Shown piece by piece: positions 1 through 28,701 of a stretch of DNA of 64,000 bases. Numbering within the stretch: position 1 is the first letter of the stretch; the number at the start of each line of letters is the position of its first letter. Both the position numbers and the translations under genes were made by a program. The DNA comes from Mrakia gelida (taxonomy: Eukaryota > Basidiomycota > Tremellomycetes > Cystofilobasidiales > Mrakiaceae): contig BRON01000016.1 in NCBI GenBank assembly GCA_024345305.1, forward strand, positions 496,001 to 560,000. Reading direction: 5' to 3'. The notes below the pieces were generated by a model. That model was not told the origin of the DNA, ran no database searches, and saw only the letters and a program-made list of their open reading frames with translations.

Positions 1-844
1 GGGCTGTGATGAGAGGGAAGTCTTCGATGATGGACGGGTAAGGAGGGAGAACGAGAGGGTGGTCGAGGGGGTCGACCTCGTCCTTGGGAGACAAAGGAGG
101 AGAGGGAATGAGCGACGACACTGCGTCAAGGAGCGAAACGTCAGATCAAAGGGACATCGTCAGTGCTCGCCTTTCAGCCTGTTGAGCGCAGAGAGAACTC
201 AACTTGGAAGAACGGGAAAGAAAGGGGTTGGAGGGGAGAAGTCAAGAGGACGAGGTTGTGGTGGTTCGAAGGAACCTTAAGTCGTTCCGTCGACTCTTTC
301 TCGCGCGTCGCGATCGTCGGACGCTGCTTTCTCCTCCGAAATGATACCATCTTTTGTTCGAGAGGAATTGATACACTTTTCACTTCACGTACTCTGGACG
401 AGTCTCCCGCTCTCTCTCTTCTCCGAAGCAACCAGTCCTTCCCTCGACTCGACTCGTCCCCTCGCTCACTCTCGTCGCGTCTCGAAAGAACCCCATCACA
501 CAGCACGCGTCTACTATCGAGGGAAAGCGAGCACTCCGAGGGCAAAGCCAAAAAGAGAAGCGAAGAGAGAAGAAAGTCAAAAAACGAAGAAGTTGAGCCT
601 GCTGAAACGAAAAACCGAGAAATCGAAAACACAAAGTTGTTGAAACCACATCGCGACACCCTCGCCCACCTCCTCGCTCCCATCTCCCTCGGTCGTCGAA
701 GACTAGATCCTCACCCTCCTCCCTCGCTCTGCCTCCTCGACTCTCCTCTCTCGCTTCAATCCTCCTTCGACTCTCCCTCGCCTCCCCATCTCCCCAAACC
801 CCGCTCCTCCCTCCACTCGACTCAGATCGACGACTGAGAGCTCC
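1..844. other. Unassigned left edge, 3' of OPI3
   Basis: No gene is supported here. The right half (about 660-835) is a pyrimidine-rich plus-strand tract, as seen in promoters or 5' leaders of this genome. At 144-154 there is GATCAAAGGGA, the reverse complement of the motif that recurs in the pheromone promoters. The long open frames on both strands have biased, arginine/serine-rich composition and no recognisable domain. The stretch could hold the promoter of a gene lying left of the window. Confidence 0.4.
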
Positions 845-5192: not shown

Positions 5193-5220
5193 AAAACATA
5201 AATATCCCGACTCCAGCAGG
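5193..5220 (-). promoter_or_regulatory. Conserved pheromone 3' element, copy 1
   Basis: On the minus strand it reads CCTGCTGGAGTCGGGATAT then TTATGTTTTGA. It is shared, with small changes, by all six pheromone genes, always 45-80 nt past the 3' UTR intron. It is probably a polyadenylation or mRNA-processing element; the role is inferred from position only. Confidence 0.6.
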
Positions 5221-5271
5221 TCCAGGCCTCCCTATCCCTCAAGAACGATTAATCAAGCCAAACCAAGTCAT

Positions 5272-5346
5272 CTAGAACGAAGAAAGAAGACCAGAGTCAG
5301 TATCAAGAGACGCTCGAAGGAAGGGAAGGGAAGGGGAAGCACTCAC
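5272..5346 (-). other. 3' UTR intron of pheromone gene 1
   Basis: On the minus strand a GTGAGT donor starts 10 nt after the stop codon, CTGAC lies at 5296-5300 and the intron ends CTAG. It is 75 nt long. The same layout recurs in the other five pheromone genes. Confidence 0.65.
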
Positions 5347-5356
5347 CAAGACTGGT

Positions 5357-5479
5357 TTAGGCGATGGTGCAGAAAAGGACGTTGGCTCCAGTGGAAGCCT
5401 TGGCCTCCTCGACGGGAGCGTTGGTCTGCTCAGCAGCGGCGGCGACGAAGGGAGTGAAGATAGCGGTGAAGGCGTCCAT
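5357..5479 (-). CDS. Lipopeptide mating pheromone precursor 1 (CaaX CTIA)
   Basis: A 40-residue precursor starting MDAFTAIFTPFVAAAAEQTN and ending in the CaaX box CTIA, expected to be farnesylated and carboxymethylated at Cys37. The variable C-terminal part is ASTGANVLFC, preceded by VEEAK, where N-terminal processing probably occurs. It lacks a signal peptide, as expected for Ste6-type exported fungal lipopeptides. The start is fixed by the shared MDAFTA leader of its five paralogues. A TATAAAA box (minus strand, 5579-5585) lies about 100 nt upstream. It is divergent from copy 2 across 576 bp. The CaaX and position near STE3 identify it; the partner receptor allele is unknown. Confidence 0.85.
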   Translation of the reverse strand: MDAFTAIFTPFVAAAAEQTNAPVEEAKASTGANVLFCTIA

Positions 5480-6055
5480 GTTGAGAGTGAAGGGTTTGGA
5501 AAGGAAGGTGGGTAGGAGAGAGGTAAGAAGGAGTTGAAAGAGTTGGTTGGGGAGGAAGAAGGTGTCGGGCGTTCGAGCTTTTATAGGATTTTCGGGATCT
5601 GCGCTTGGTGGAGGAGGGAACAAGGGATGAAACGGAAAGGAGAAGGAGTGGAAGCCGTTCTGTAGGAGAGAAGAAGCCGAAAGAAGGTCGAAGAGCGAGA
5701 AGAACAAAAGAAACTTGTCTCGCGCGCGCGCTGAAACAAGGGGCTGAGCGAACGAGACGCGTCGATCTCTGGTCCTTTTGATCCGGCTGGATTTCCGCTC
5801 GCTAGATAGATTGCGGCCTATTCGCGTCCCGTCGAACAAAGAGAAAGCAATCTATCTTTGCTATCTCCTGCGCGTTTCGAGCGTTGTTCTCGAACAGAAC
5901 AACGCGAGGTGAAAAAAGAGGTCCGAGCGTCGGAGATCTTGCTCGACCCTTAAAATAGCGACCTCAGTTCGTTTCCCATCTCTTCCCTCAACCACTACCT
6001 ACCTTCTACTCCACCTCTTCACTCCAACCCAAACCAACTCCTTCTTCACTTCACA
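5480..6055. promoter_or_regulatory. Bidirectional promoter of pheromone pair I
   Basis: It contains CCTTTTGATCC at 5774-5784, ACAAAGAGA at 5836-5844 and the inverted repeat CGTTGTTC (5882-5889)/GAACAACG (5897-5904). There is a TATAAAA on the minus strand near 5579-5585 and TTAAAATA near 5950 for the plus gene. The stretch 5725-5819 resembles 22363-22445 in pair III, with shared blocks in the same order. The motifs look like HMG-box protein sites and resemble the Ustilago pheromone response element ACAAAGGGA; that function is inferred. Confidence 0.6.
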
Positions 6056-6183
6056 ATGGACGCCTTCACCGCTACCCTACCCTCTCTCCCTTCGTCGCCG
6101 CCGCTGCTGAGACCACCACTGCTCCCTCCGTCGAGGCTAAGGTCTCCACCGGAGCCAACGCTCTCGTGTGCATCATTGCTTAA
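6056..6183 (+). pseudogene. Frameshifted pheromone precursor 2 (CaaX CIIA out of frame)
   Basis: It starts MDAFTA like its paralogues, but 35 nt lie between the A of ATG and the TTC of the conserved FVAAAAE, so the start and the mature peptide are in different frames. The downstream frame reads FVAAAAETTTAPSVEAKVST then GANALVC-IIA and TAA at 6181-6183. The altered segment is 6074-6090, where the other copies have 12 nt and this one has 17. No ATG in the peptide frame was found just upstream. Read from its own ATG the protein has no CaaX end. The 3' UTR intron and downstream element are intact, so this is either a recent break or a base-calling error. Confidence 0.7.
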
Positions 6184-6194
6184 GTCGAGTCATT

Positions 6195-6282
6195 GTGAGT
6201 CTCTCTTCCTCTCTCGACCCTCGCTCGTCGTCTCCTCGTTCTGACATCCTCCCGCTTCCGCTCTCTCTTCTCTCTTTCGCAG
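6195..6282 (+). other. 3' UTR intron of pheromone copy 2
   Basis: The GTGAGT donor lies 12 nt past the stop, CTGAC is at 6241-6245 and the acceptor is TTCGCAG at the end. It is 88 nt long and is retained although the reading frame is broken. Confidence 0.6.
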
Positions 6283-6325
6283 GCGACTTCGCTGCGATGT
6301 GGAACGATGGGTTATAACGAGCTTC

Positions 6326-6352
6326 GCTGGACTCGGAGCAGATATATGTTTT
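6326..6352 (+). promoter_or_regulatory. Conserved pheromone 3' element, copy 2
   Basis: Reads GCTGGACTCGGAGCAGATAT followed by ATGTTTT. This is the most diverged of the six, with an internal insertion. Confidence 0.5.
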
Positions 6353-7446
6353 GAATCCCTGATCTCTTCCGTTCTAAGCAAGACCTCTTCCTCTCTTTCT
6401 TCGAAAGCATCGACACGGACAAGTCTCGACACGTCGCTCTGGTTATGTTTCTGCCGATGAGCTGCTTTCTCATTCACGCAAGTCACCCCATCTCATTTGA
6501 TATCTCACTCTGATCTTCTATGAACCTCTCTCGTCCCTGTTCGACGATGGCTCGCCTTAGAGAAGATCACAGCTCGTCTGCGACGACGTCGTCGTTCCTT
6601 TTCCCTCTGCCACGCCGTTTTCGCAGCGCCAGAAATCCGTCGCAGAGAAGATGGGTCTGCAGCTTGGTGGATAGGAGCACGAGAACACGAGAGCTAAGCG
6701 CGGAACTCCTGCTAGATCTTCTCCCAGTTTCGAGCGACGACTACGATGCAGGCGACTCTGCTCTTCTCCCTGCGAGCTCGAGCGATGAAGAGGGCTCTTT
6801 CGAGACTGCGAACATGTGGAGCAGGTGGTGGTAGCAGCTCCCACATGAGCCTGACGTCAGCAAGAAGGCAGCGTATCTGCAGAAGCAAGGGGTCGAGCTC
6901 TCGAGGGAGAGGACTCAGGAGTTGAAGCCCGCTGCTAAGGCAAAACAGGGACGAAAGAACAAAGAAATCTCCCAGGGTCAGATGAGTGCGAGCGGAAGGC
7001 GTTCTGATGGAAAGGAGGTACGAGCGGGGAGACGTTCGGAGCTGGCCTAAGGACGAATGAAAGGGACGAGGGAACACGAACGGTCGAAGCTCGCCGGAAG
7101 CGGAGGCGAGGGAAACTGAGAGATGATGCCAGCAGAGCTGTATCGAGCCCTAGAGGTCGTGCTAGCAAATGGTATATCCTGATACGAAGACGAAGCTCGG
7201 CTATTAACGAGTTTGTTTATCCGAGATAAGTGCTCGTTTGAAGAGGAGGAAGGAAGGAAAGGGTGAGCTCGACCAAACTCAGGGTGATCGAGAATCAACC
7301 TCCCATTGTTCTCGTTCTTCCAGTTTCACTCGTCCTTCAACCTCCAACGAGCAGAGCTGACCTCTTTTTGACACTTAACAGCGAGCATCCTCTTAGACAG
7401 ATACACATCCCTCCTCATCCTCTCTCCCCTTCCCCTTCCCTTCGCC
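6353..7446. other. STE3 upstream region without a recognised gene
   Basis: About 1.1 kb. Only low-complexity open frames without domains or splice-site context were seen. The 150 bp before the STE3 start are CT-rich. No exact CCTTTGATC site was found, unlike the pheromone promoters; ATTTGATATC near 6497-6506 is the nearest match. Confidence 0.4.
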
Positions 7447-8877
7447 ATGCACGACCTCGTCTTCATCATCTACGCCTTCTTCGCCCTCTTCCTCCTCCTT
7501 CTCGCCTCCCCTCCTCACTGGCGCTCAGGCAACGTCGGAGCCCTCTGCCTCGTCGTCTGGGCCTTCATCGGTACCCTCGGATTCCTCGTAAACGCCATCG
7601 TCTGGTGGGACAACATTGAGGATCATTCTCCGGTCTGGTGCGATATCTGTCAGTGAAAACGTCGAGCTCAACCTCTTCCTCCTCCCCCTCCTCCTCCTTC
7701 CCTCCCCTCCTTTTCGAGCTCGCTGACTTGGCTTCGTCGCTTTTCAGGGACCAAATTGAACGTCACGCTCACCACTGGAATCGCTGCAGGATGTCTCTGC
7801 GTCAACCGTCGTCTGATGATCATCTCTTCAGCAAAGAGGTCGTCCGTTTCGTCGAGGGATCGTCGGTGGGGATTCTGGATCGACGTCGCTATCGGACTCG
7901 TCCCTCCCATTTTCGTTATGGCGATCCACTACACCGTCCAAGGAAACCGCTACAACATCCTCGAGGGACACGGATGCATCCCAGCTACGTACAACGACTG
8001 GAAGGGCATCGTGGTCGTCTACATCCCCGCTCTCCTCCTCGGAGTGATCTCGTTCGTTTACGGAGGTTCGTCGTCGCTTCTCTTCCTTCTCCTTCCCGTT
8101 TCGTTCTCGTACTCACCTTATCTCTGCCTCTTCCTTGCAGGCCTCTCCATCTACAACTTCACCTCTCGTCGTCGTCAATTCCAATCCGTCCTCCAAAACT
8201 CGTCGGGAGGACTCAACACCTCGAGGTTCATTCGACTCATCTCCCTCTCCTCCCTCGAAATGCTCCTCACCGTCCCCGTTGGGATCTGGTCGACCTCCTA
8301 CGCCTTCCAATACACCCTCTCCCCTGCTCTCAACTGGAAGGACACCCACGAGGATTTCTCCAAAGTCTACAGCTTCGACGCCGCCGCCATGATCGCCGCC
8401 GGTGCTTTGGTTATCGAGCGTCCTGCGATTCAACGTTGGATCCCCGTCTTCGCCGCTTTCGCCTACTTCTGCTTCTTCGGAGCGCAGGAGGAAGCCTTGG
8501 TGTCTTACTGGTGGGCGGCTGGGTGGGTGGTCAGGACTGGGAAGAGGCTTTTCAAGAAGCGAGGAGCAGACGCGTCAGTTCTTTTCGCTCTCGTTGTCCC
8601 CCACGCGGCGAGCTCCTGCTGACCTCTCCCTTCTTCGTTCTCTCTCTACAGGCCAACCACTGAGGACGCCTTCCTTCGTGTACCCCAGCTCGGCAACTCC
8701 ATCGGGCCCGTCAGCCCAACCAACCCTGGCTTCCCAAATCGGTCGACGGAGGATCTCGAGAAGGGAGGACTCTCGTTAACGATCACGGAGGATGGAGAGA
8801 AGGAGGCTTCGCTAGGAGTGGGTCACAAGAAGTCGGGGATAGCGGTGAGGGTGGAACGGAACGTGGTTGAGGAGTGA
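7447..8877 (+). CDS. STE3: STE3-type lipopeptide pheromone receptor (GPCR)
   Basis: Seven-helix plasma-membrane receptor of the fungal STE3 family, which binds farnesylated pheromone of the opposite mating type and signals through a heterotrimeric G protein. Four exons (7447-7648, 7748-8065, 8141-8573, 8652-8877) give 392 residues. Helix 1 is HDLVFIIYAFFALFLLLLAS. The family signatures are NAIVWWDN, WCDIWTKLNVTLTTGIAAG, CLCVNRRL and CIPATYNDW, then a cytoplasmic loop with SRRRQFQ. The hydrophilic C-terminal tail of about 85 residues starts after WVVRTGKRLFKKRG. Donors are GTCAGT and GTTCGT. It sits between pheromone pairs I and II, the usual P/R arrangement. The mating-type allele cannot be told from sequence alone. 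Confidence 0.93.
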
Positions 8878-9496
8878 TACATCCGGTCTTTTGGGTTTCG
8901 TTTCGCTTTCGTCCTTCGTCTTTTGTTTGTGCTTCTTTTGGGTACTCTGTTTGCTACACATAGATGACTACTTAGTAATTTACACGCTATTCTATTCACG
9001 CTTCGTTTTACTTCGATGAAGAAGAGGAGACACGAAGTGGACGGACGAAAAGAGATCGCGAGTCGCGAAGTCTCGACGCGTCGTCCCTTTCTCGTCGTAC
9101 CCCGATTCCGCAAACCTTCTCGATAGACTTCATGCTGCAGCGTTGGACCCTTTATTGTCGCTTGTATCGAAACTTCCTGTTGTGAACAACTAGGTCTCGT
9201 AATCGAAGGAACGAAGAGGCCATCGCGACCTCGACGCAAAATGGTCTCAACGTTCGAAAGAAGACTCTGCGGGCCCTTCCTTCCGATCTCGAACTCTTCC
9301 AGAATCTGAAGGACAACACTTGAGTTAAGTTACAGCGAGAATGTGCGACGATCCGGATTGCACGTAAGACGGACGCGGGGTTCGCGAAAGAAGACGACGC
9401 GCTCGCGTTTGACTCGCGGAAAGCGCACCACTTATCTCTTTTCTTCGCTCTCGGGTATCTTTCGGTCACTGAACAGGCTCTCAGGAAGTTGATTGT
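8878..9496. other. STE3 3' flank and spacer
   Basis: Downstream of the receptor stop, 8878-9000 is AT-rich with TTTGTTTG runs and probably contains the STE3 3' UTR. The rest has no supported gene. The next feature is the 3' element of pheromone gene 3. Confidence 0.4.
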
Positions 9497-9526
9497 TTAA
9501 AACATATATCCCCGAATCCAGCAGGT
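9497..9526 (-). promoter_or_regulatory. Conserved pheromone 3' element, copy 3
   Basis: Minus strand reads CCTGCTGGATTCGGGGATAT then ATGTTTTAA. It matches the elements behind the other pheromone genes. Confidence 0.6.
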
Positions 9527-9564
9527 TCAACATCGCGTCCGTCCATCGAGCTCAAAGTGATCAT

Positions 9565-9650
9565 CTGAAGGAAAAGAAGAAGAAGGGGGGGCAGGTCAGC
9601 TTCGTACATCGGAGGAGGAGTGCAAAAGAAGTGAAGGAAGAGGTACTCAC
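9565..9650 (-). other. 3' UTR intron of pheromone gene 3
   Basis: GTGAGT donor 10 nt after the stop, CTGAC at 9595-9599, CTTCAG acceptor; 86 nt. Confidence 0.65.
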
Positions 9651-9660
9651 GAGACTCGAT

Positions 9661-9783
9661 TTAGGCGATGGTGCAGAAAGCGAAGGTAGGTCCGGTCGAC
9701 CTCTTCGCCTCCTCGACGGGAGCGTTGGTCTCCTCAGCGGCGGAAGCGACGAAAGGGGTGAAGATGGCAGTGAAGGCGTCCAT
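9661..9783 (-). CDS. Lipopeptide mating pheromone precursor 3 (CaaX CTIA)
   Basis: A 40-residue precursor: leader MDAFTAIFTPFVASAAEETN, then APVEEAK and the variable end RSTGPTFAFC followed by TIA. The encoded protein is identical to precursor 6 at 22649-22771 although the nucleotide sequences differ at several third positions. It is divergent from precursor 4 and lies about 0.8 kb downstream of STE3. Expected processing is farnesylation at Cys37, removal of TIA and N-terminal trimming near EAK. A TATA-like TACAAAAG is found on the minus strand about 110 nt upstream. Confidence 0.87.
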   Translation of the reverse strand: MDAFTAIFTPFVASAAEETNAPVEEAKRSTGPTFAFCTIA

Positions 9784-10353
9784 GTTGAGAGTTGAGAGGT
9801 TTGGAAGGAAGGTGGGTAAGAAGGGAGTGAAGAGTGGAGTTGAAGGTAGTGGTTGGAGGATAAGAACGAGGAGGGAGGGACGTCGAGCTTTTGTACCTCG
9901 CGCCTCGATTTCGGATCCTCCCTTGTTCTCGCTCCTCGAACAAAAGGAGTGTCGAGAAGACAGGTATCGACAGGAGGGGATGCATCGAGGAATCTGGCCT
10001 TTTAGCCAAGTGCATGCATGACGCCGGAAGAAGTCGAGAATGAAACGAAGGAGAACAAAGGGGAAGTCGAGGGCTGAAAGGCGAAGACCGAGGAGTTCCC
10101 TTTGATCTTCTCGATTTCCTTTTCATTGACGAGAGCTCTCGCCTTTGATCCCTCTGTTCTCGTTTCGACGATCCTCTGGGCAGGCCTGGGCGCTCTCCGG
10201 ATGCGAACAAGGGCATTTCGGAAAGCTCGAAAAGGGTACAAAAAGGTCGAACGACGCGTCTCTTCCTCTTTCTCTCCAACCACTACCTTCACTCCACTCT
10301 TCACCTTCACTCCTCTTTACCCAACTAACCCGAAACCTTCCCTCGCTCTCAAC
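9784..10353. promoter_or_regulatory. Bidirectional promoter of pheromone pair II
   Basis: It contains CCCTTTGATC at 10098-10107, GCCTTTGATCCC at 10141-10152 and ACAAAGGGG at 10055-10063, close to the known PRE core ACAAAGGGA. There is an inverted repeat TTGTTC (9923-9928)/GAACAA (9938-9943). A TATA-like TACAAAAAG near 10238 serves the plus gene. The stretch GCCGGAAGAAG near 10023 is shared with pair III. Confidence 0.6.
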
Positions 10354-10476
10354 ATGGACGCCTTCACCGCTATCTTCACTCCCTTCGTCGCTTCCGCTTC
10401 CGAGCCCACCACCGCTCCTGTCGAGGAGGCGAAGAGGTTCACCGGAGCCAGCGTTCTCTTCTGTGTCATCGCCTAA
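10354..10476 (+). CDS. Lipopeptide mating pheromone precursor 4 (CaaX CVIA)
   Basis: A 40-residue precursor: MDAFTAIFTPFVASASEPTT, then APVEEAK and the variable end RFTGASVLFC with the CaaX box CVIA. It is the most distinct of the intact copies: Phe replaces Ser after Arg, and the box is CVIA, not CTIA. The leader is nearly invariant, so selection or gene conversion has kept the N-terminus while the peptide varies. The 3' UTR intron uses a GTTCGT donor, unlike the others. Confidence 0.87.
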   Translation: MDAFTAIFTPFVASASEPTTAPVEEAKRFTGASVLFCVIA

Positions 10477-10488
10477 ACAGTCTTCATC

Positions 10489-10570
10489 GTTCGTCCACTT
10501 CTTCTCTCTCGTGATAAGCATTTCCTTTTTAGCTCGCTGACCCTTGCTCTTCTCTGCCTTCCTTTCACAG
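10489..10570 (+). other. 3' UTR intron of pheromone gene 4
   Basis: GTTCGT donor 12 nt after the stop, GCTGACC branch-like site, TTTCACAG acceptor; 82 nt. Confidence 0.6.
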
Positions 10571-10605
10571 AACTTTGATGGACGGCGGACATTTTGGACT
10601 TCGAG

Positions 10606-10634
10606 CCTGACTGGATCAGGATCTTAATGCTTTA
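10606..10634 (+). promoter_or_regulatory. Conserved pheromone 3' element, copy 4
   Basis: Reads CTGACTGGATCAGGATCTTA then ATGCTTTAA. It is the same element with a few changes. Confidence 0.5.
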
Positions 10635-10917
10635 ACGATCTCTTAACTACCTTTCTCCTTATCCTGAAAGATAGTCTCGAACGAAACCTACTCCCGAAGA
10701 AGGTCAAGAGAAGAAGCGATCCCAAGCTCGCCGCTTTCGTTCCGCGAAATAACCACTCGGCTTCGACGACCTCACCTCTCTGCTGTTCCTTGCTCGTTCT
10801 CGACCAAGTCGCGTCGGGTATGAGAAGTCGTAAGAGTGATTGCATAAAGGGAGAAACAACATTAAAGCAAGCTAGGAGGCGAGATGAAGCAGAAAGCGGC
10901 GGGCTCGTCGAGTTCGT
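10635..10917. other. Spacer between pheromone gene 4 and RPC2
   Basis: Convergent intergenic region of under 300 bp; nothing recognised. Confidence 0.4.
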
Positions 10918-13900
10918 TCACACAGCGTCCTGAGAAGATAGAAGGAAAGGTCAGCCTCGGCTTCGCGCTTCATCTCGACACAAAAAGCGGGGAGATAGAC
11001 TCACCTCGAATCTCAGTCGAGGAACGACGTTCATGGCGAGAAGCTGGAAAGAGAGAGGGAGTCAAGTCAGCTTTCGGTCGTCGTCCAAGACGCGTGAATA
11101 ATATCAGAAGACGAGAGCTCACCTCCTGGAACAGCAGCTTCGCAGCGTAGGGCATGGTGATCTTGATGACGTTCTTGGAGCTGTGGCAGTACGTGCACCA
11201 TCTGGGAGAAGAAGCGAGCAGAGCAAGGCTGGTCAGCGACTTCGCGTCGCGAAAGAGAGGCTCGCTCGCTCGAAGACTCACCCGTTGTAGCCCATCAGAC
11301 CACACTCCTGGCAGGCATCCGTCTCGAAGGCGTCCGACGAGATCATGAGACGTTCGAGCATTAGCTGGGTAGCTCCGTATCCGACGAGACTGAGACGAAG
11401 GACGAGAGGAGAGTCAGCTCGCACTTCGAGGAGGAGAACGAGGCGAGAACGAGAACGACTCACCAATCTCTCTCCATCTCTCCGAGACGAAGACCTCCAT
11501 CTCGACTCCTTCCTTCGGTAGGTTGGCGAGTGAGGACAGCTCGAGGACCACTACATCGAGCGAAAAAAGGGGAAGAGTCAGGATTCCGAAACGAACGAAG
11601 GACGGGACGAGAGTCGAGAGAGACGGACCGAGGTCGAGCGTGCATCTTGTCCATGACCATGTGCTTGAGCTTCTGGTAGTAGATGGGACCGAAGAAGACG
11701 TAGGCTTCCAGAGACTGTCCGGTGATTCCGCTCGTGAGCATGTCCTTTCCAGAGTAGTCGAACCCGCTCTCGATGAGGATCTTCTGCATGTCCTCGACCT
11801 TCGATCCACCGAACGCAGTCTGGAAGAGAGAAGATGACGGTCAGTAAGGGAGGCAGAATTCGAGGGAGAGACGGGTACTCACTCCGTACTGAAGCCTGGA
11901 GGGAAAAGCGAAAAGACGAAGTCAGTCAAGGGTCGAACGAGCGAAGAGAAGCGAGACGCGATCACTCACTTTCCCGAGAGAACTCCAGCCTTTCCTGCTA
12001 GCAGCTCGATCATCTTTCCGACAGTCCTGGGTAAGAGAAGAAAAAAAGGTCGTCAGCTTCGAAGCGAAGCTTGTTGTGCGTCGAACGACTTACATCCGAG
12101 AAGGGAAACCGTGAGGGTTCATGATGATATCGGCTGGAGAACGAAGAACGAGTCGAGTCAGCGACGGCTTCGAGTCGAGCGCGAGAAGAGCCAAAGACTC
12201 ACGGCAGATTCCCTGATCGTTGAACGGCATGTCCTCCTGAGGAACGATGAGACCACAGACTCCCTTCTGTCCGTGACGAGACGAGAACTTGTCTCCCAGT
12301 TCTGGTCGACGCGTCTGACGGATGAGGACCTTGATGAGGAGTTGATCGTTCTCGCTGTCCGTGAGCATGACCTTGTCGATGTATCCAGCGATGGGAGACT
12401 TGTAGCTGAGAGGGGCGTTCTTGAAGGAGCTGGGTTGAGCGGCGGTTCCGGGGTTGAAGCTGTTGTCGTTCGCGTTCGTCGGGGTCTGCTTGTTGATGTA
12501 GACGTCTCCTGGGTCGACTCGCTCTCCTGCTCCGGCGATTCCGTCCGACTGGATGATATCGTATCGCTTCTGGACGAGTCCGGTGTCTTCGTCGATGGGA
12601 GCGTCGCAGATTCGGTCGTAGCTGGAGGAGAAAGAGACGAGGAGTCAGTCGAGGTTTCGAACTCGACGTGCTTGGAAGCGAAAGGGTTCGACTCACGTTC
12701 CATTGGGATACTTCCTGATCATAGCGACGTTCTTCCTGAGGACCTGGCATCGTCCGTAGCCTCGATCAACCGAAGCCTGAAGGAAAGGAAGGAAAGGAAG
12801 CGAGGTAAGCGGCGGATTCGACCTCGACCCGTCGAAACTCGTCCCTTCTCGAACTCACCTTGTTCAGGATCAAAGCATCCTCGATATCGTATCCAGAGTA
12901 ACTCATGACGGCGACGGTAGCGTTCTGACCAGCGGGAAGCTTGTCGTATCCGATGAGTTCGATCGTCTTGGTCTTGACCATCGGTTGTTGAGGGTAGACC
13001 ATGAGGTAGAGGAGGGTGTCGATTCGGTTGAGCTGGTTGTAGGCGATGGCTCCGATGGCTTGCTTTCCCATGGCGCACTGATAGGTGTTTCGAGGCGACT
13101 GGTTGTGGTGAGGGTAGGGGATGAGACCGGCGACGGCTCCGAGGATGGTGAAGGGTTCGATTTCGAGATGGGTGGTTCCAGGGACGATCATGTTCTCGTA
13201 GAGAGCGATGAGGGAGTCGTTCTCCTCGTTACAATCGAGGTACTCGATGATTCCGGAGGCGAGGAAGTCGTCGAAGGTCTTCTTGCCGTCCTTGAGGAAC
13301 TGTGAAGGAGAAGAAGAAAGGTCGTGAGCTCGAGAGACGAAGGAGGGATTCGAGACGAGACGAGACGCGACGAACCTTCATGTGAGCGTCCGTGAGTCGA
13401 GGGACGCCCTTGTCGACGATGATCATGGGACGACAGATTCGACCTCCGTCACTGGCGATGTATACGACTCGATGATGGGTGTTGATGTAGATGGAGACGA
13501 ACTCGGACATCTTTCCTGCTCGACGAAGCTTCCTGAAGTTGGTCACGAATCGAACCGGCGAGGGAGTGAGACCGACGATGTTTCCGTTGACGTTGACCAT
13601 GAAGGTTCCAGGACGGTAGAGTTCGTTTCCGGTGACGAGAGAGCAGTCTGGAGAGGGGAAGAACAGAGAAGATCGAGTCAGTCGCCGTCAAGAAGCGAAG
13701 GTGAGGAGGGGAGCGTCGACGAACCTTCCACTCCGAGGAGGTAAGCAATCTTCGTGATAGCCTCGTCGGGAACGTCGGTGGTGATGTGGGTCATGAGCGC
13801 GAGGTTCTTGACGAGACCACACGCCTCTCCTTCTGGGGTATCACTGGGACAGAGCATTCCCCACTGCGACGGCTGCAGGGCTCGAGGACCGGAGACCTTC

Positions 13901-16119: not shown

Positions 16120-16390
16120 CGCTAGGCACTCGAAAAGGAGAGAAGGTGGGAGAGAAGGGTGGGGGGTGGTGCTGTGAGGATGGAAGTCTTTGAGAGGCAG
16201 AGGAGTTGGTCTCGTGAAATCGACGAGCTCAACTTCGCCCTTCCCCTCCCTCCACTCCCCTCCTTCGTCTGCTTCCTCTCGCACATCCTTCAAAGGAAAA
16301 CTTCCTTCCCTCTCTGCCCCCTTCATCTCCCCTTCATCTATCCAGCAACCCCCACTCTCTTCTCGTTTTCTTCTCTTCTCCCCCTCCGCC

Positions 16391-17892
16391 ATGGCTTCCA
16401 AGATCAGCTCTTCCGGGACGAGCACCCCTCAATCGACCAACTCGAACCTCATCCTCAAACGACAGCTCATGGGTAAGCTCATCCCTCCTTCTCTCTACAT
16501 CATCAAGACGAAGGTAGTCTCCTCTGTCGGCTACCTCGATCTCCAGCTTGGAGCGAAGTCCTGGCCTCTGGTAGGGAAGGAAGGGAAGGTCGAGAGGGGC
16601 GCTCCTCCTTCCTTCCAGCTTCCTCGTCGCCGCGTCCCTCCTTCCAGCACTTTCCCTCCCCTTTAAATCTTATCCTTTTCGCTGACACGCGTTCCTTCAC
16701 TTCCTGGATGCAGAACTCCGCAAGAAGCCCGTCGATGGGTTCTCTGCTGGTCTCGTGGACGACGACAACCTCCTCGAGTGGGAGGTCCTAATCATCGGGT
16801 GAGCTCATCTCTGCCTTCCCTCCTTCTTCTTCTCCTCGAGTTACTCTCTCTCGCCTCTCCCCTTTCTCCGACTACTTCGCCGCCTTACTAGGTCCATATG
16901 GAGAGACTGAGGAGCCGAGAAATGGAGCAGCACCGTCTCCCTGTCTCCTCTGCGGACGACCTTCGCTGTTCACTCCCTTTCCTTCCAAGCGACCGCCTCG
17001 ACGATCCTCGAGCTGACTTCGCTTCTTCTCTCCTTCTCCAGTCCTCCCGACACCCTGTAGTAAGCATAGCTCTACTCGTACAAATCTAAGTTCGATCCTG
17101 ACCTCGCTCTTGTTCGTTCTGCAGCGAGGGAGGCTTCCTCAAGGCTCGACTCTCCTTCCCTCCCGAGTTCCCTCTTCTCCCTCCAACCATGCGATTCACT
17201 ACCTCCATGTGGCATCCCAACAGTCAGTCTTCACCTCGAAATCTTCTCCTTGATGTCTCTCAGTCGCTGACGAGCTGCCTCCTCTCGATCTGCAGTCTAC
17301 CCCGACGGAAAGGTCTGCATCAGCATCTTGGTTCGTTCAGCCCTCCCCTCATCGAGAGTCCTTCCCTCTTCCCCACTTCCTTCGCTGACCTTTTTGCTCG
17401 TCTCGTTCCTTCTTTGCAGCACGCCCCCGGAGAGGATCAGTACGGTCACGAAGACGCTGGAGAGAGGTGGATGCCCGTTCACTCCGTCGAGTCCATCGTT
17501 AGTTCCTCTCGCGCGTCTCGTCGTCGTCTCGCTTCCTTCGGCTCCTGACTCTCGCGTTTTCCGCTTTCCTCGACTCTCACAGCTCATCAGTGTCATCAGT
17601 CTCCTCTCGCAAGACGTTCCCAACCTCGATGGACCTGCCAACGTCGATGCTGCCGTGAGTCCTTTCCTCGGCCGTCCCTCCTTTTGATTTCCTCGTCGCT
17701 GACGTGACTCCTCGTCGCCCTTCTTTCGCTTTCACAGAAGGAGGTCAGGGAAGATATCGCCGGTCAGTCTCCTCTTCCTTGCTTCCTCTCGTTCGAACTC
17801 AGCTGATCCCTTCTCCTCGCGTTTCTCCCTCAGGCTACAAGAAGAAGGTCCGGCGACTCGTGCGTCGCAGTGCTGAGGAGGCTTACGACTAA
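16391..17892 (+). CDS. UBC7: Ubiquitin-conjugating enzyme E2, UBC7/UBE2G type
   Basis: E2 enzyme that carries ubiquitin as a thioester; UBC7-type E2s act in ER-associated degradation. Start MASKISSSGTSTPQSTNSNL, then LILKRQLM-ELRKKPVDGFSAGL, DDDNLLEWEVLIIGPPDTLY, EGGFLKARLSFPPEFPLLPP and MRFTTSMWHPN. The active-site cysteine is in VYPDGKVCISILH. The acidic insertion APGEDQYGHEDAGERW after it is the mark of the UBC7/UBE2G subgroup. It ends VRRLVRRSAEEAYD. There are about eight introns, several flanking very small exons (for example PPDTL). It is divergent from RPC2 (271 bp) and convergent with SRP9. Confidence 0.9.
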
Positions 17893-18028
17893 GGCCTGTC
17901 TCTCCGTGGGTGGAAGCGTGTCCTGCATGGTTTTTCTAGTTTTATTGGGTCTCGAGCGAATGATGTGTATGAGGGTTGGCGTTTTGCTGGAGTGTTGGAG
18001 ACGTGACCAGAGCCCGCCTCGCGACCCG

Positions 18029-18055
18029 ATCTACTCGAGAGTAACCAGAGTAGAT
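18029..18055. repeat. Inverted repeat between convergent UBC7 and SRP9
   Basis: ATCTACTC (18029-18036) and GAGTAGAT (18048-18055) are perfect inverted arms around an 11-nt loop. The repeat lies midway between the two convergent stop codons, so it might form an RNA hairpin in both 3' UTRs. Confidence 0.5.
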
Positions 18056-18181
18056 GGGTAGGCTCCTTCTCTCTTCCGAGCCTGCCTTCCGAAGAGACCG
18101 TCGATCGCGAGGCATCCTCTCACACTCACGAGTCCAGGCGAGAGTCACTACGAACGAGTTTCATCCATCACCAACGAGCGA

Positions 18182-18817
18182 CTACTTCTTCTTCGACTTA
18201 GTCTTCTTCTTCTTCCCTCCAGCTCCCGCCGCTCCACCTGCTGCTGGCGGCGGTACCGATCCGTCGTCGACGGCCATAGGTTCTGATGAGTCCGCGGCCC
18301 CTGCTGGTATCGAGGATGCTTCGGGGAGAGGATCTGTGGAGGAGGAGGCGAGAGGAGCGGGTTTGGTTTGGAGGTTGGCCATCTTGTTGAGTAGACTCCG
18401 GTTAAGGGTCTCGAAACGGTTGAGGATGATGGCGGAGGTGGCTTTGTGTTTCAGGCACTGTGGAACGAGAGCGACAAGTGTGTTTAGAAAAGGTTGGGAG
18501 GAGGAGAGAAGGGACAGCGAGGAGGAAGGAGAGCAAGCTCACCTTGACATCGTTCGTGACCTTCAGGACCAGAACTCCGTCGCACGCCCTGAACTTAATG
18601 TTGTATCGCGTCTACAAGAGCGAGGAGGAATCAGTCAGCATATTCCTTGATGTTCAAGTGGCTCCGAGACGGACCTTAGTAGGGAAAGCGAGGTAGAGCT
18701 GAAGGGAAGGAGGGGAAGGGGGTCAGCTCGAGCTAGAGGGAAGGGGAGGTCGTCTGAGCTGCTTCACTCACCTCCTCAACCTCCTTCTGATACCGAGTCC
18801 AGCTCTTGATGTAGACC
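18182..18817 (-). CDS. SRP9: Signal recognition particle subunit SRP9
   Basis: Alu-domain protein of the signal recognition particle, which targets secretory proteins to the ER. Joined exons read MVYIKSWTRYQKEVEE, LYLAFPTKTRYNIKFRACDG, VLVLKVTNDVKCLKHKATSA and IILNRFETLNRSLLNKMANL. This follows the SRP9 pattern (W..F...AE.LYL..P.K.R...KYRH.DG.L.LKVTDD..CL.Y). A fungal-type extension of about 65 residues, rich in Ala/Pro/Gly, ends in a lysine run (KKKKTKSKKK) that may bind SRP RNA. The ATG at 18817 is the first Met before the conserved WTRY; an earlier start with NPFLA in frame cannot be excluded. Three introns. Confidence 0.8.
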
Positions 18818-18992
18818 ATAGCGAGGAAAGGATTCTGGATGGGTTTGGAAGATAGAGGAGTTGATGGTTGCAGGCTGAACGAGGGGAGGGAAGCTCGACC
18901 TTTCGACAGCTCAGCCGTTTTCGTTTGATCTCGTTTTTGGAGAGCTCACCTTTCCTTTCCTTCCCTCTAACTGCATCGACCTTCAAGCTCGA

Positions 18993-21608
18993 ATGCTTCG
19001 TGGTCTACTAGATCTCAGTACATCAGCTAAAGGAGCGGGTATCATCTTCAAAACTGGTCTTCGTCTTCAGCAAGCAGATCTCCTCGGAACATCCTCCCCT
19101 TCCTTCACCTCCCAACCTCGCTCAGATCCTCCAGATGTCGTCGCATCAGCTGCAGCCTTCAGCACCTCGAGCTCAGCTCCCTCCAACCAACCTTCTACAC
19201 CTTCTACCTCCGGCTTCGTCCTTGACCTTCGTCCAACGGCGGAATATCGAACAGCAAGAGGTCTTCCCTCCTCCGACCTTCCTCCTCCTCAGCCCATCAT
19301 CACCCTCGACCCGACACCACCAATCGACCTGCCTCCGCCAAACTCCACACCTTCCTACTCTCCCCCAGCTCCCTCTCATTCTAAAATATCTTTAGAAGCG
19401 TTCTCCTCCCAGTCTCCATCTTCACCTCCTTCACCTTCCTCCCTCTTCGATCTCGGCCCACCTCCAGCAGCCCCCTCCCCATCCCAAGCCCACCCCATCT
19501 CCTTCCAACCCTTATCAGCGGAGCCGCTCCTTACAACGACTCCTCCACCTCTCGAGCCAGTAGTTCCAACAGTCGATGCTCTCGGAAACGTCACCGGTTG
19601 GGTCGAGCAGGAGGACATTTTGAACGAGGTGAGCTTCTTCGTCCTCCCTCGTCGCGTTCTCGAATCGAGCCTGAGCTTATCTTCTTGCCTTAATCGGCAG
19701 GTCCCCGTCACTCTCAAACCGTCTCGGATCCCTTCATCTCGGATAGGTCGACTCTTCCACTACGGAAGTGAGTTCTCGTCTCTCTCTGCCTCGATGTCGT
19801 CGACGAGCTCGCTGACCCACTCCTCCCTCCCCTCAGGTCTCGCTACCTCGCTTTCGTTTGGAGCAGCATCCGAGGCGATCCGTCGGTCAACATCCTCGTC
19901 TTTGGAACCTCAAGGATCGCTCCTACTCTCGGAAGGAAACATAAAGCGACTCGTCGAGAAGCTCGGTCAGATGCGGGGAGCAGCCCTCAAGCTCGGACAG
20001 TTCATGAGCATCCAGGATTCAGGATCGCTCCCTCCCGAGCTGGAGAAGGTCCTCAGCCGAGTCCAGGCTGGTGCGGATTACATGCCTGATTGGCAGATGA
20101 GTGTGAGTTTTTCGTTCCTCCTCATCGTCTGAGTTATCGACGCTGACTTCGCGTCCTCCCTGTTCTCGCGTTCGTCCTTCCAGAAAGCCATGAGTGCCGA
20201 GCTCGGTCCCGAATGGCGTTCTCGTTTCAAGGAGTTCTCGGAGGTCCCCATCGCATCAGCCTCCATTGGTCAAGTTCACTCAGGAATGGTCTCGATGTTC
20301 GGACTCGATCTCCCCGTCGCCGTCAAGATCCAGTTCCCAGGCGTCGCGACTTCCATCTCCTCCGATCTCGCCAACCTCTCCCTCCTCCTTCGATCCTCCT
20401 TCCTCCTCCCAAAAGGTCTTTTCCTTGAAAATACGCTCAAGGTCATGCGAGGGGAGCTCCAGGAGGAGTGTGACTATATCCGAGAGGCGGAGTGCGCTCG
20501 TCGATTCGGAGCGTTGCTTGGGACGGGAGAGCCAGGAGAGGAAGGGAACGTTGGAGGGCCATTCAGGGTACCGAGGATTCTCGACGAGCTGAGCACGGGG
20601 AAGGTGTTGACAATGGAGCTGATGGAGGGGAAGCCGCTGAGTCGAGTGACGGGATTGAGCCAGACTTTGAGGAACGAGGTGAGTCTCGTCTCGACGCGTC
20701 TTCCTTCTCGCTGCTCGTTCATCTGAGCTGATCCTTTCCTTTTATTTCTTCAGATTGGTTCCAACATCATGCGACTCTGTCTTCGGGAGCTGTTCGAGTT
20801 TCGACTCATGCAGACCGATCCGAACTGGTCGAACTTCCTCTTCAACGCGAAGACTCGACAGGTTCGTCCTCCTTCCCTCTTGCTCTCCCTTCCTCTCGAA
20901 CCCCGACTGATCGCAGGCTCCTTTCCCACCTCAGATTGAAATCATCGACTTCGGAGCCACTCAGGAGTACTCGAAGCCGTTCATGGACGACTGGTTCCGG
21001 CTTCTTCGAGCCGCCATCGAGGACGACAAGGTCGCGATGAAGGAATCGAGTCTTCGACTGGGTTACCTCACTGGAGACGAGAACGAGGTGAGCAATACCC
21101 TCCTCCAGTAGTACACTCGTCTCTGCGTTCAAATCTGACGACATCGACCTTTCTTCGCCTCCCAGGAAATGCTCGACGCTCACCTCAAGTCGATGTCGCT
21201 CCTCGGTCGTGAGTTGAGAAGCTCGGTCCATCACCCCTGTTCTCCATCGCTGACCGTCTTCCTCTCTTATCACTCGACCCCAGTCCCTTACCGTCGAACT
21301 GCTACCGGAGCTCCCTTCGACTTCTTCAACCAAACGATCACGACTCAGGTTCGTTCAATCTCGGCTTTCGTTCTCGCTTGCGTCTCGCAAAAAAGACTGA
21401 CCTCCCATCCCCGTCACTCTCTCTTCGCTTCCAGGTCAAGGAACAGATCCCCGTCATGCTCAGGCACCGACTCACACCACCGCCGAGGGAGACCTACTCG
21501 CTCAACAGGAAACTCAGCGGGGCGTTCCTCCTTTGCGCGAGGTTGGGGAGTCAGGTCGATTGTGCTGGCATGTGGGAGGAGATCAGCGCGAACTACGTTC
21601 TGGATTAG
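18993..21608 (+). CDS. COQ8: Atypical kinase COQ8/ABC1 (mitochondrial ubiquinone biosynthesis)
   Basis: ADCK/UbiB-family atypical kinase-ATPase of the mitochondrial inner membrane that supports the coenzyme Q synthesis complex. The N-terminus [20 protein letters not shown] is followed by a long Pro/Ser-rich linker (about residues 45-200). The conserved part then has the family-specific KxGQ region [14 protein letters not shown], then [32 protein letters not shown] (Ala-rich loop in place of the usual P-loop), [29 protein letters not shown] and [12 protein letters not shown] (DFG). It ends [12 protein letters not shown]. About eight introns. ABC1 is reported as linked to STE3 in some red-yeast mating regions, which agrees with this context. 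Confidence 0.9.
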
Positions 21609-21833
21609 ATGTCTGATTGATCTTCATTCTTCACCATAACTCGAGTGTATATCCTTTGCAAGGAAGAATTGAGACGACGATCAGGCGTGGGTCGACGCGT
21701 CCTCGTTCGTCCAACCTCCGACTCTTCCTCTTCGTTTCGCACGTTATCAAGATCGAGCTCGAGTCGCGGACATGCTTTCGCTCAGAAATACGCGAGAGTG
21801 ACTTTCAGGAGAAGGAGAAGAAGAGCAACGTCG

Positions 21834-21863
21834 TTAAAACATAAATATCCTGACTCCAGCAGG
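21834..21863 (-). promoter_or_regulatory. Conserved pheromone 3' element, copy 5
   Basis: Minus strand reads CCTGCTGGAGTCAGGATATT then TATGTTTTAA. This is the best match to the consensus and nearly identical to the copy at 5193-5220. Confidence 0.6.
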
Positions 21864-21900
21864 TTCAAACTCCCAAACGAATCAAGCCCAAAAAGTTGAT

Positions 21901-21988
21901 CTGGAAAGGAGACGAGGGGAGAAGAAGGTCAGCTTGGAGCTCAGGCAGGTGGAGGAGAAAGGAACGAAGGAAGAGAAAAGACACTTAC
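21901..21988 (-). other. 3' UTR intron of pheromone gene 5
   Basis: GTAAGT donor 9 nt after the stop, CTGAC at 21928-21932, CCAG acceptor; 88 nt. Confidence 0.65.
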
Positions 21989-21997
21989 GAGGTTGGT

Positions 21998-22120
21998 TTA
22001 GGCGATGGTGCAGAAAGCGAAGGTGGGTCCAGTGGAAGCCTTGGCCTCCTCGACGGGAGCGTTGGTGGTCTCAGCGGCGGAGGCGACGAAAGGGGTGAAG
22101 ATAGCGGTGAAGGCGTCCAT
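21998..22120 (-). CDS. Lipopeptide mating pheromone precursor 5 (CaaX CTIA)
   Basis: A 40-residue precursor: MDAFTAIFTPFVASAAETTN, then APVEEAK and the variable end ASTGPTFAFC followed by TIA. It differs from precursors 3 and 6 mainly by Ala for Arg at the start of the peptide and Thr for Glu in the leader. It lies immediately downstream of COQ8, more than 11 kb from pair II. A TATA-like TACAAGAG (minus strand) is about 100 nt upstream. Confidence 0.87.
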   Translation of the reverse strand: MDAFTAIFTPFVASAAETTNAPVEEAKASTGPTFAFCTIA

Positions 22121-22648
22121 GTTGAGAGTGAGGGGTTTGGAAGGAAGGTGGGTAGGATAGAGGTAAGGAGGAGTTGAAAGAGTTGGTTGGAGGAGAGAAG
22201 GGTCGTTCGAGCTCGAGCTCTTGTAGGATTTCGAACAGATTCGGACCCACGTTGGTCTCTTCGAACAACGAACGGATAAGACATGAAACGGCAGGAGAAC
22301 AGGCTCGATACAGGTCTAAGAAGCCGGAAGAAGGACTCGAAGAAGAAGAACAAAGGACGTCTGCGCGCTGAAACAAGGGGCTGAACGCGTCGATCAGCCC
22401 GCCCTTTGATCCGCTTGTTCTTCTGGATTGGTATAGATTGCGGCCCTTTGATCGTTGTTCGAGAACAATCTATGTCTCCTGCTCGTTTCAGTCGTTGTCC
22501 CGAAGCGTCGAAAGTCACCCGAGGCGGCGAATTCTCCATAAAGACTGGAGCTGGCGACTCTACTCCTCTCCTCCAACCACTACCTTCACTTCACTCCTCA
22601 CCTTCACTCCTTCTCAACCACCCAACCGAAACCCTCTCTTACTTCAAC
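22121..22648. promoter_or_regulatory. Bidirectional promoter of pheromone pair III
   Basis: It contains CCCTTTGATCC at 22402-22412, CCCTTTGATC at 22444-22453, ACAAAGGA near 22350 and the inverted repeat TTGTTC (22455-22460)/GAACAA (22463-22468). The block 22363-22445 repeats the order of elements found at 5725-5819 in pair I: GAAACAAGGGGCTGA, ACGCGTCGATC, CCTTTTGATCC/CCCTTTGATCC, CTGGATT and ATAGATTGCGGCC. This supports segmental duplication of a whole divergent unit. Confidence 0.65.
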
Positions 22649-22771
22649 ATGGACGCCTTCACCGCTATCTTCACCCCTTTCGTCGCTTCCGCCGCTGAGG
22701 AGACCAACGCTCCCGTCGAGGAGGCGAAGAGGTCGACCGGACCCACCTTCGCTTTCTGCACCATCGCCTAA
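22649..22771 (+). CDS. Lipopeptide mating pheromone precursor 6 (CaaX CTIA)
   Basis: A 40-residue precursor with the same protein sequence as precursor 3: leader MDAFTAIFTPFVASAAEETN, end RSTGPTFAFC and TIA. The plus-strand 5' leader has the motif CAACCACTACCTTCACTYCA, shared with pheromone genes 2 and 4. The stop is followed by an intron at 22782. This identity across two pairs 13 kb apart points to recent duplication or gene conversion. Confidence 0.87.
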   Translation: MDAFTAIFTPFVASAAEETNAPVEEAKRSTGPTFAFCTIA

Positions 22772-22781
22772 ATCGAGTCTC

Positions 22782-22877
22782 GTGAGTTGGCCTTCCTTAC
22801 TCCATTTTCCTGGCACTCCTCTTCGATCGATGGGCGAAGCTGACCTGCCTGGCTTCTCTTCTTCCTTCTCTTTTCAG
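22782..22877 (+). other. 3' UTR intron of pheromone gene 6
   Basis: GTGAGT donor 10 nt after the stop, GCTGACC branch-like site near 22839, TTTTCAG acceptor; 96 nt. Confidence 0.65.
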
Positions 22878-22928
22878 ATGACTTTGGGCTCGATGACCGG
22901 ACGCGAGCTCGTTGAGGTTTGCTCCCTT

Positions 22929-22954
22929 GCTGGACTTGGGATATTATTGCTTTG
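22929..22954 (+). promoter_or_regulatory. Conserved pheromone 3' element, copy 6
   Basis: Reads GCTGGACTTGGGATATTATT then GCTTTG; a clear match to the family consensus. Confidence 0.55.
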
Positions 22955-28223: not shown

Positions 28224-28701
28224 CGTCTCTCTGCCAACCAACTCTCTTCTGGTTCGAAAAAGTCGCGTCCCTCGACGCCTCGCTCGTCCTTCGCTCGCTT
28301 GGGGGGAAGAGCAGTTCAAAACGAAACCAGTCATCATAAAAGGCAAGCACACATCATCAAGTTCGAGAGCGACGAGGGAAAGAGAAACCAGGGAAAGCAA
28401 GAAAGCGTGAAAAGAAAGGTTCGAGGCGTGAGGAGAGACGAACGTGAGTGACGAAGCGAGACGTGACGCGTAAAACAAAGAGATAGACTAGTAAGGGGGT
28501 GGACGTAGACTACGTTAAACATGAGGGGGAGAGGAGGTAACCATCCTTCGAGAGAGAAAGAAAGGGAGAGGGAGAACGAAGCAAAAAGCAAGGAGGGAGG
28601 GAAAGGACAAAGGGACTAGGGAGAGAGATGAAGTCGAACCGACGAAGAGGGACGAGAAAGGTGAACAGGGTTGGTGGAGGAACGGGCGCTGGGTGAGGGG
28701 A
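28224..28701. other. Convergent spacer CNOT11/STE20
   Basis: About 480 bp holding two 3' UTRs. No gene or repeat seen. Confidence 0.4.

What the first reader, a model, noticed from the sequence alone, without database searches (positions are those of the whole stretch)
5193..22954. Six-copy pheromone precursor family in three divergent pairs around STE3
Six near-identical 40-codon units (5357, 6056, 9661, 10354, 21998, 22649) are seen, each with an MDAFTA leader and a CaaX end. They are always head-to-head in pairs separated by 530-580 bp. Red yeasts and related fungi often have pheromone genes with repeated peptides; here the multiplication is of whole divergent gene units.
Basis: partly seen in the sequence, partly recalled or inferred. 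Interest (0 to 1): 0.9.

Follow-up and report, generated by a model that had tools for sequence, protein, structure and literature searches.

The report
Yeast mating locus with thirteen pheromone genes
This yeast carries two pheromone receptor genes and thirteen small pheromone genes, mostly in back-to-back pairs, within one stretch of its genome, which suggests that a single strain may be able to signal to itself for sex.

Summary
This is not a red yeast: the nearest named relatives of receptor and precursors are Mrakia frigida (Cystofilobasidiales). A genome-wide search finds 13 units, all on one contig within 69.6 kb: six complete pairs (gaps 526-576 bp) and one orphan. A second STE3 starts 38.5 kb from the first. 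Twelve intact precursors give six predicted mature peptides in three classes. Same-class coding exons stay alike while much of the flanking sequence has diverged, which suggests gene conversion of short coding cassettes. Closest known case: Phaffia rhodozyma, where two receptor/pheromone clusters in one genome activate each other (primary homothallism). Cryptococcus also has divergently arranged copies, up to four, with identical mature peptides. I read this as an expanded Phaffia-like, probably self-compatible P/R locus; self-activation is inferred, not shown. No paper listed in my ten searches of the held library describes such a locus. New variant of a known kind.

The parts
5357..5479 (-). 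pheromone precursor P5m, intact 40 aa, predicted mature end ASTGANVLFC (+TIA)
5480..6055 (.). shared 576-bp promoter region of pair 5 (has AACAAAG, no ACAAAGG)
6056..6183 (+). pheromone unit P5p, frameshifted; its second-frame reading has a class-C-like leader half (ETTTAPSVEAK) and a class-B-like end (STGANALVCIIA)
7447..8877 (+). STE3-B pheromone receptor, 4 exons (7447-7648, 7748-8065, 8141-8573, 8652-8877), 392 aa
   Evidence: exon borders set by hand from GT..AG and homology
9661..9783 (-). pheromone precursor P6m, intact 40 aa, RSTGPTFAFC (+TIA)
9784..10353 (.). shared 570-bp promoter region of pair 6, with an ACAAAGG word
10354..10476 (+). pheromone precursor P6p, intact 40 aa, RFTGASVLFC (+VIA)
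21998..22120 (-). pheromone precursor P7m, intact 40 aa, ASTGPTFAFC (+TIA)
22121..22648 (.). shared 528-bp promoter region of pair 7, with an ACAAAGG word
22649..22771 (+). pheromone precursor P7p, intact 40 aa, same protein as P6m
28518..31391 (-). pieces of a STE20/CLA4-like PAK kinase (Pkinase, PBD, weak PH), a usual P/R-locus neighbour
   Evidence: exon structure not worked out; PBD also found on C18, C5 and C6

Best explanation
This is the pheromone/receptor (P/R) mating locus of a yeast of the order Cystofilobasidiales related to Mrakia. Shown from sequence: two paralogous STE3 receptors whose starts lie 38.5 kb apart on one contig; 13 lipopeptide pheromone units (12 intact) in six divergent pairs plus one orphan; three classes of predicted mature peptide; one HD1/HD2 pair on another contig. 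Inferred: the divergent pair with its shared promoter is the unit of duplication; short gene conversion of coding exons between same-class copies keeps the classes intact while flanks drift; and the two receptor modules answer each other's pheromones, so that one genome is self-compatible at the P/R step, as in Phaffia rhodozyma. Class-A peptides around STE3-B would act on STE3-A, and class-B/C peptides around STE3-A on STE3-B; this assignment is a guess by analogy. Copy number would add pheromone dose.
For: Two STE3 genes found genome-wide, both on C16; 13 of 13 pheromone matches on C16 with either query. Receptors about 71% identical, dS 0.59, dN 0.21, with dN near 0.4 in codons 201-323 against 0.05-0.10 in codons 324-392. 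Intact class B and C genes flank STE3-A, intact class A genes flank STE3-B. 12 of 13 units have a GTRAGT donor 8-11 nt after the stop and 12 of 13 a GCTGGA-type 3' motif; 10 ACAAAGG words in 3,862 bp of promoter against a shuffle mean of 0.62. Same-class leaders differ less at synonymous codons (34/299) than between classes (198/1088), 4 of 5000 label shuffles as large, while 260 bp upstream and the downstream stretch show no class signal in that test (1980 and 2228 of 5000). Phaffia precedent: PMC4915694 (passages; Discussion part 1 of 2).
Against: Nothing here tests ligand-receptor pairing, transcription or ploidy. The mature part has pN/pS 0.73, below 1, so positive selection is not shown. 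Synonymous divergence is low between classes too (0.182 against about 0.47 in flanks), so codon bias may explain part of the homogeneity. In the tree test the downstream stretch does show some class clustering (4 changes, 6 of 200 shuffles as low), unlike the upstream stretch (6 changes, 135 of 200). The CDS tree makes class C one group but not A or B. Pair 4 mixes a class-B and a class-A gene between the modules, so class and module do not match cleanly. The least alike receptor segment is cytoplasmic (291-323, 13/31 identical), not a loop. The receptor tree does not resolve one-to-one matching with Mrakia's two receptors. The Mrakia precursor P0007 is listed on a contig of another length than the receptors. 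N-terminal cleavage after E-A-K/R is assumed.
Confidence: 0.6

Rival explanations
1. Heterothallic, mushroom-type P/R locus: two receptor subloci, each with several pheromones, none of which activates the receptors of the same genome; different strains carry different sets.
For: One receptor with several pheromones per subgroup is the mushroom arrangement (PMC4136793 passages); a rust also carries two distinct mfa genes on one haplotype (PMC10977897 passages). David-Palma et al. considered the same alternative for Phaffia and set it aside only because strains did not differ (PMC4915694 Discussion part 1); no second strain could be compared here.
Against: The receptors group with Mrakia's and P0003 (100/99), not with the eight Agaricomycete rows sampled; the order holds an unusually high share of homothallic species (PMC8545103 section 3 and section 5 part 1).
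Confidence: 0.25
2. Dosage amplification: one specificity per receptor, extra copies only raise pheromone output, and the differences among mature ends are tolerated drift.
For: Cryptococcus deneoformans MFalpha copies contribute additively (PMC12510652 section 19); some copies encode identical proteins here (P6m = P7p; P3m = P4m); pN/pS of the mature part is below 1.
Against: Mature ends differ more than leaders (pN 0.416 against 0.108; 1 of 10,000 column shuffles as large), and class C (AVCSSSGFYGC) shares little with class A.
Confidence: 0.1
3. Assembly artefact: two mating types of a dikaryon or diploid joined on one contig.
For: The genome (34.9 Mb) is somewhat larger than the 30.5 Mb given for Mrakia blollopis (PMC5103461 passages).
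Against: At E 1e-8 the self-comparison of 120 kb shows no second copy of the other genes around the modules; a 2.4-kb control stretch has one full match and seven short ones; one full HD2 match and one full HD1 match.
Confidence: 0.05

Closest known systems
Phaffia rhodozyma P/R locus (STE3-1/MFA1 and STE3-2/MFA2)
   Same: Same order; two sister STE3 receptors and different pheromones in one genome on one scaffold; STE20 near; one HD1/HD2 pair apparently unlinked (PMC4915694 and PMC5103461, passages).
   Different: Phaffia has one pheromone gene per receptor and gene sets about 5 kb apart; here 13 units in seven places, receptors 38.5 kb apart with other genes between, receptors about 71% rather than about 50% identical.
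Cryptococcus MFalpha/MFa repeats
   Same: [quoted passage not shown] PMC12510652 passages and section 19).
   Different: Up to four copies per mating type with identical mature peptides there; here 12 intact copies with six predicted mature ends and two receptors.
Agaricomycete B mating loci
   Same: Several receptors, each with several different pheromones, in one genome (PMC4136793 passages).
   Different: Receptors here fall with Mrakia. Whether mushrooms have such fixed-gap divergent pheromone pairs was not examined.
Rust fungus Pra/mfa loci
   Same: More than one distinct pheromone on one haplotype in one species (PMC10977897 passages).
   Different: One or two mfa genes per allele, some precursors with repeated peptides.

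Membership tests
Basidiomycete P/R mating locus | STE3-type receptor | tested here: met
   PF02076 E 2.3e-83 (STE3-B) and 1.4e-83 (STE3-A, one residue mis-spliced)
Basidiomycete P/R mating locus | short precursor with CaaX end linked to the receptor | tested here: met
   12 intact of 13 units on the receptor contig; Pfam 'Pheromone' below its cut-off for the class-A peptide (E 0.051) and not reported for the class-B and class-C peptides
Basidiomycete P/R mating locus | STE20-type kinase nearby; HD1/HD2 pair elsewhere | tested here: met
   Pkinase and PBD at window 28518-31391, though PBD also occurs on C18, C5 and C6; HD1/HD2 on C11
Basidiomycete P/R mating locus | alternative allele in another strain | not testable with these tools
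   only one genome held
Phaffia-type primary homothallic P/R locus | two closely related receptors plus pheromones in one genome | tested here: met
   that the assembly is of a haploid is not shown
Phaffia-type primary homothallic P/R locus | one pheromone gene per receptor | tested here: not met
   13 units
Phaffia-type primary homothallic P/R locus | each receptor activated by the other cluster's pheromone | not testable with these tools
   needs deletion or reporter assays
Cryptococcus-type MF repeats | divergent arrangement of copies | tested here: met
   six pairs, gaps 526-576 bp
Cryptococcus-type MF repeats | identical mature peptides | tested here: not met
   six predicted mature ends in 12 intact copies
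Cryptococcus-type MF repeats | copies kept alike by gene conversion | tested here: inconclusive
   codon bias not excluded
Agaricomycete multi-sublocus B locus | receptors within Agaricomycete receptor clades | tested here: not met
   five-row Mrakia/own clade 100/99; 15 rows only, deeper fork weak (78/79)
Agaricomycete multi-sublocus B locus | non-self activation only, multiallelic | not testable with these tools
   one genome
Microbotryomycete (red yeast) locus | closest relatives in Microbotryomycetes | tested here: not met
   best named matches are Mrakia frigida

The most novel reading that the evidence does not exclude
A yeast genome that keeps a repertoire of six lipopeptide mating signals as exchangeable coding cassettes of about 120 bp: gene conversion moves or refreshes the coding exon between fixed promoter and 3'-end frames, so that peptide classes are retained and new or chimeric ones can arise (the broken unit at 6056 reads as a class-C leader half with a class-B end), with two receptors reading the repertoire inside one self-compatible genome.
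Probability: 0.3. Interest if true: 0.75.

Novelty: new variant of a known kind. Interest (0 to 1): 0.6.

Why it matters
Pheromone duplication in Cryptococcus has been read as redundancy and dose, because the copies encode identical mature peptides, and gene conversion as their keeper is still marked 'if confirmed' (PMC12510652 section 19). A locus with 13 copies in three peptide classes, whose coding exons and upstream flanks seem to have different histories, lets both ideas be tested in one genome. It also offers a possible intermediate between the two-pair Phaffia locus and the many-pheromone loci of mushrooms, in an order where homothallism is thought to have arisen several times (PMC8545103 abstract).

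Tried and rejected
Red-yeast (Microbotryomycete) origin: rejected, nearest named receptors and precursor are Mrakia frigida. Tandem-repeat precursors in the style of rhodotorucine (recalled): rejected, each precursor has one mature end. Haplotype duplication: not supported. One-to-one matching of STE3-A/STE3-B to Mrakia's two receptors: unresolved, identities 64.9-67.3% and forks of 80/58 and 85/90. Strand-specific lineages of the flanks (all minus units one group, all plus units another): none seen. Solved-structure relatives of STE3-B by sequence: none at E 0.001. Rfam on the window: 0 matches at gathering scores. A partner for the orphan unit at C16:449317: none recognised by eye in the 900 bp printed and none. 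Novelty searches of the held papers: (ten, the cap); I saw titles and the starts of abstracts, and four listings were cut (20 of 23, 10 of 11, 12 of 13, 8 of 40); none that I saw describes such a Mrakia-like P/R locus. Gene conversion of pheromone repeats as such is not new (PMC526376). No structure prediction was run.
Full report
Observation. The six units are real. In the window, ORFs of 40 codons start at 5479(-), 9783(-), 10354(+), 22120(-) and 22649(+), and a sixth unit starts at 6056(+). The sixth is frameshifted: its start and its CaaX end lie in different frames, and a scan for CaaX ORFs of 25-90 aa with an ATG finds none there. The three pairs are head to head with 576, 570 and 528 bp between the ATGs. 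The mature ends are not identical (below).

Whole-genome setting. The window is C16:496001-560000 of a 34.9-Mb assembly of 25 contigs. A protein search with a class-A precursor finds 13 places, all on C16 between 449,195 and 518,768; a class-C query finds the same 13. They form six complete divergent pairs with gaps of 526-576 bp and one orphan at 449,317(-). Twelve of 13 are intact. STE3 (PF02076) gives four exon matches in two genes, at C16:465.0-466.0 kb and 503.5-504.5 kb, spliced by me as 464,989-466,392 (STE3-A) and window 7447-8877 (STE3-B), four exons each.

Who it is. STE3-B's best relatives are two Mrakia frigida receptors (67% identity), both listed with the same longest-contig length of 602,898. 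An alignment search with the precursors returns 14 proteins, one of them named as M. frigida (on a contig of 447,299, so not shown to be linked to the receptors), the rest without an organism name. All 14 share an MDAF(T/S)A(I/M/V)F leader, and they have 13 different ends, P0014 and P0015 sharing one. P0007 (M. frigida) and P0006 share the APSV(E/D)AK..FYGC pattern of class C, and P0005 and P0008 resemble class A, so the classes may be older than the species (read by eye). In a tree of 15 receptors, chosen by me from those found, the two own and two Mrakia receptors plus the unnamed P0003 form a clade (100/99), apart from Tremella, Cryptococcus and eight Agaricomycete rows; inside it support is low (80/58, 85/90).

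Peptides. The 12 intact precursors give six mature ends if cut after E-A-K/R: AVCSSSGFYGC (3 copies, class C), RSTGANALMC (3, class B), RSTGPTFAFC (2), ASTGPTFAFC (2), ASTGANVLFC (1) and RFTGASVLFC (1) (class A and its variants). The cut site is assumed. Nonsynonymous difference is 0.416 in the mature part against 0.108 in the leader, and 1 of 10,000 column shuffles was as large; but pN/pS in the mature part is 0.73, so this is relaxed or diversifying change, not proof of positive selection. The broken unit at 6056, read in its second frame, has a class-C-like leader half (ETTTAPSVEAK) before a class-B-like end, so it looks chimeric.

Unit anatomy. 13 of 13 units have a TATA-like word 105-117 bp before the ATG, by a loose set of six words that I made after seeing the sequences; 12 of 13 have a GTRAGT donor 8-11 nt after the stop, 13 of 13 a CTGAC branch-like word, and 12 of 13 a GCTGGA-type motif 129-157 nt after the stop; unit 10354 lacks the donor and the last motif. 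So an intron in the 3' UTR right after the stop is probably a family trait; no transcript was seen. The promoters hold 10 ACAAAGG words in 3,862 bp against a mean of 0.62 in dinucleotide shuffles (maximum 4 in 500); six of seven promoter regions (the orphan's 550 bp counted as one) have one, pair 5 has only AACAAAG. Of the receptors, STE3-A has two ACAAAGG words in 600 bp upstream and STE3-B none. The word resembles the pheromone response element of smuts (recalled). The copies are homologous, so the sites are not independent.

History. Self-comparison of C16:440,001-560,000 aligns whole pairs to each other, for example 463,067-463,899 with 470,859-469,990 inverted, so STE3-A is flanked by inverted copies of one pair; apart from pheromone units and STE3 only two other repeats appear at E 1e-8. 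In trees, coding exons cluster by peptide class (3 changes, 0 of 200 shuffles as low; class C 100/100, but A and B not single groups), upstream flanks do not (6 changes, 135 of 200), and the downstream stretch does to a degree (4 changes, 6 of 200). With five labels (two class-A variants kept apart), same-class leaders differ at 34 of 299 synonymous comparisons and between-class leaders at 198 of 1088; 4 of 5000 label shuffles were as extreme, while upstream and downstream distances show no class signal (1980 and 2228 of 5000). In five of six printed profiles identity is 0.90-1.0 in every 30-bp bin of the 120-bp exon (the sixth, P7m/P7p, dips to 0.80); it is 0.46-0.75 in the 30 bp before the ATG and 0.18-0.43 at 150-179, but rises again in patches, near -90 (up to 0.97) and at 210-299 (up to 1.0). 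Gene conversion of short tracts fits; strong codon bias with saturated flanks could explain part. Fraser et al. already proposed conversion for Cryptococcus pheromone repeats (PMC526376, passages).

Receptors. STE3-A and STE3-B are about 71% identical, with dS 0.59 and dN 0.21; codons 201-323 have dN near 0.4, codons 324-392 0.05-0.10. By a topology that I drew by hand, the third extracellular loop region is 17/37 identical, the membrane-near cytoplasmic stretch 291-323 13/31 (the lowest) and the distal tail 61/69. A conserved distal tail fits one shared signalling partner; the loop difference would fit different ligands, but the lowest stretch is cytoplasmic, so this is weak evidence.

Neighbourhood. 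The modules are spread among ordinary genes: EMC1 (471 kb), APC1 (481-488 kb), an Rpb2-type RNA polymerase subunit (window 12.1-14.3 kb), and a PAK-type kinase at window 28.5-31.4 kb with PBD above and PH below the cut-off, hence STE20/CLA4-like. PBD also occurs on C18, C5 and C6. Pair 4 (478 kb), with one class-B and one class-A gene, stands between the modules. HD1 and HD2 stand divergently on C11 near 377.2 kb. Two further HD1-like N-termini are on C1 and C9 (38 and 33% identity), without a second HD2 match of weight (next E 0.07).

Reading. In Phaffia rhodozyma, of the same order, two receptor/pheromone clusters in one genome activate each other and the species is homothallic (PMC4915694, passages and part 1 of 2 of the Discussion). 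The present locus has the same layout in outline with many more pheromones. Cystofilobasidium capitatum instead has one receptor and two identical precursors (PMC8545103 section 5 part 1). In Cryptococcus, copies are often divergently arranged, up to four, with identical mature peptides, and rusts have some distinct ones (PMC12510652, passages and section 19). I therefore judge an expanded Phaffia-like, self-compatible P/R locus most likely (0.6) and a mushroom-like heterothallic locus next (0.25). The assembly does not look like two merged haplotypes.

Limits. One genome, no expression data, no crosses, no other strain, ploidy not known, organism unnamed. Exon borders of STE3 and the peptide cut site are set by hand. 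The neighbourhood Pfam scan covered 30 chosen ORFs plus two more pieces of the kinase, out of the 185 ORFs that my coding score picked in 160 kb, a few being taken from the list instead. Papers were searched only in the held open library, and most were seen as passages or listings.

Noticed in passing
G000 C1:2259827-2260129(-) and C9:761547-761828(+): Two extra HD1-like genes unlinked to the HD1/HD2 pair on C11; the C9 copy has weak Mating_N and Homeobox_KN matches below cut-off. Only one strong HD2 match was found.
   Followed up: partly
pheromone units, e.g. just after the stop of window 22649-22771: A likely intron in the 3' UTR directly after the stop codon (12 of 13 units with GTRAGT 8-11 nt downstream); reason unknown.
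   Followed up: partly
G000 C16:494577-495107 and 495580-496123 (the second overlaps window 1-123): Direct repeat, 76% identical, unidentified.
   Followed up: no
window 33005-34129(-): MutL C-terminal domain (mismatch-repair type gene) about 1.6 kb beyond the PAK-type kinase pieces.
   Followed up: no
window 42861-43048 and 55824-56009: Inverted repeat, 68.5% identical, about 190 bp, 13 kb apart.
   Followed up: no
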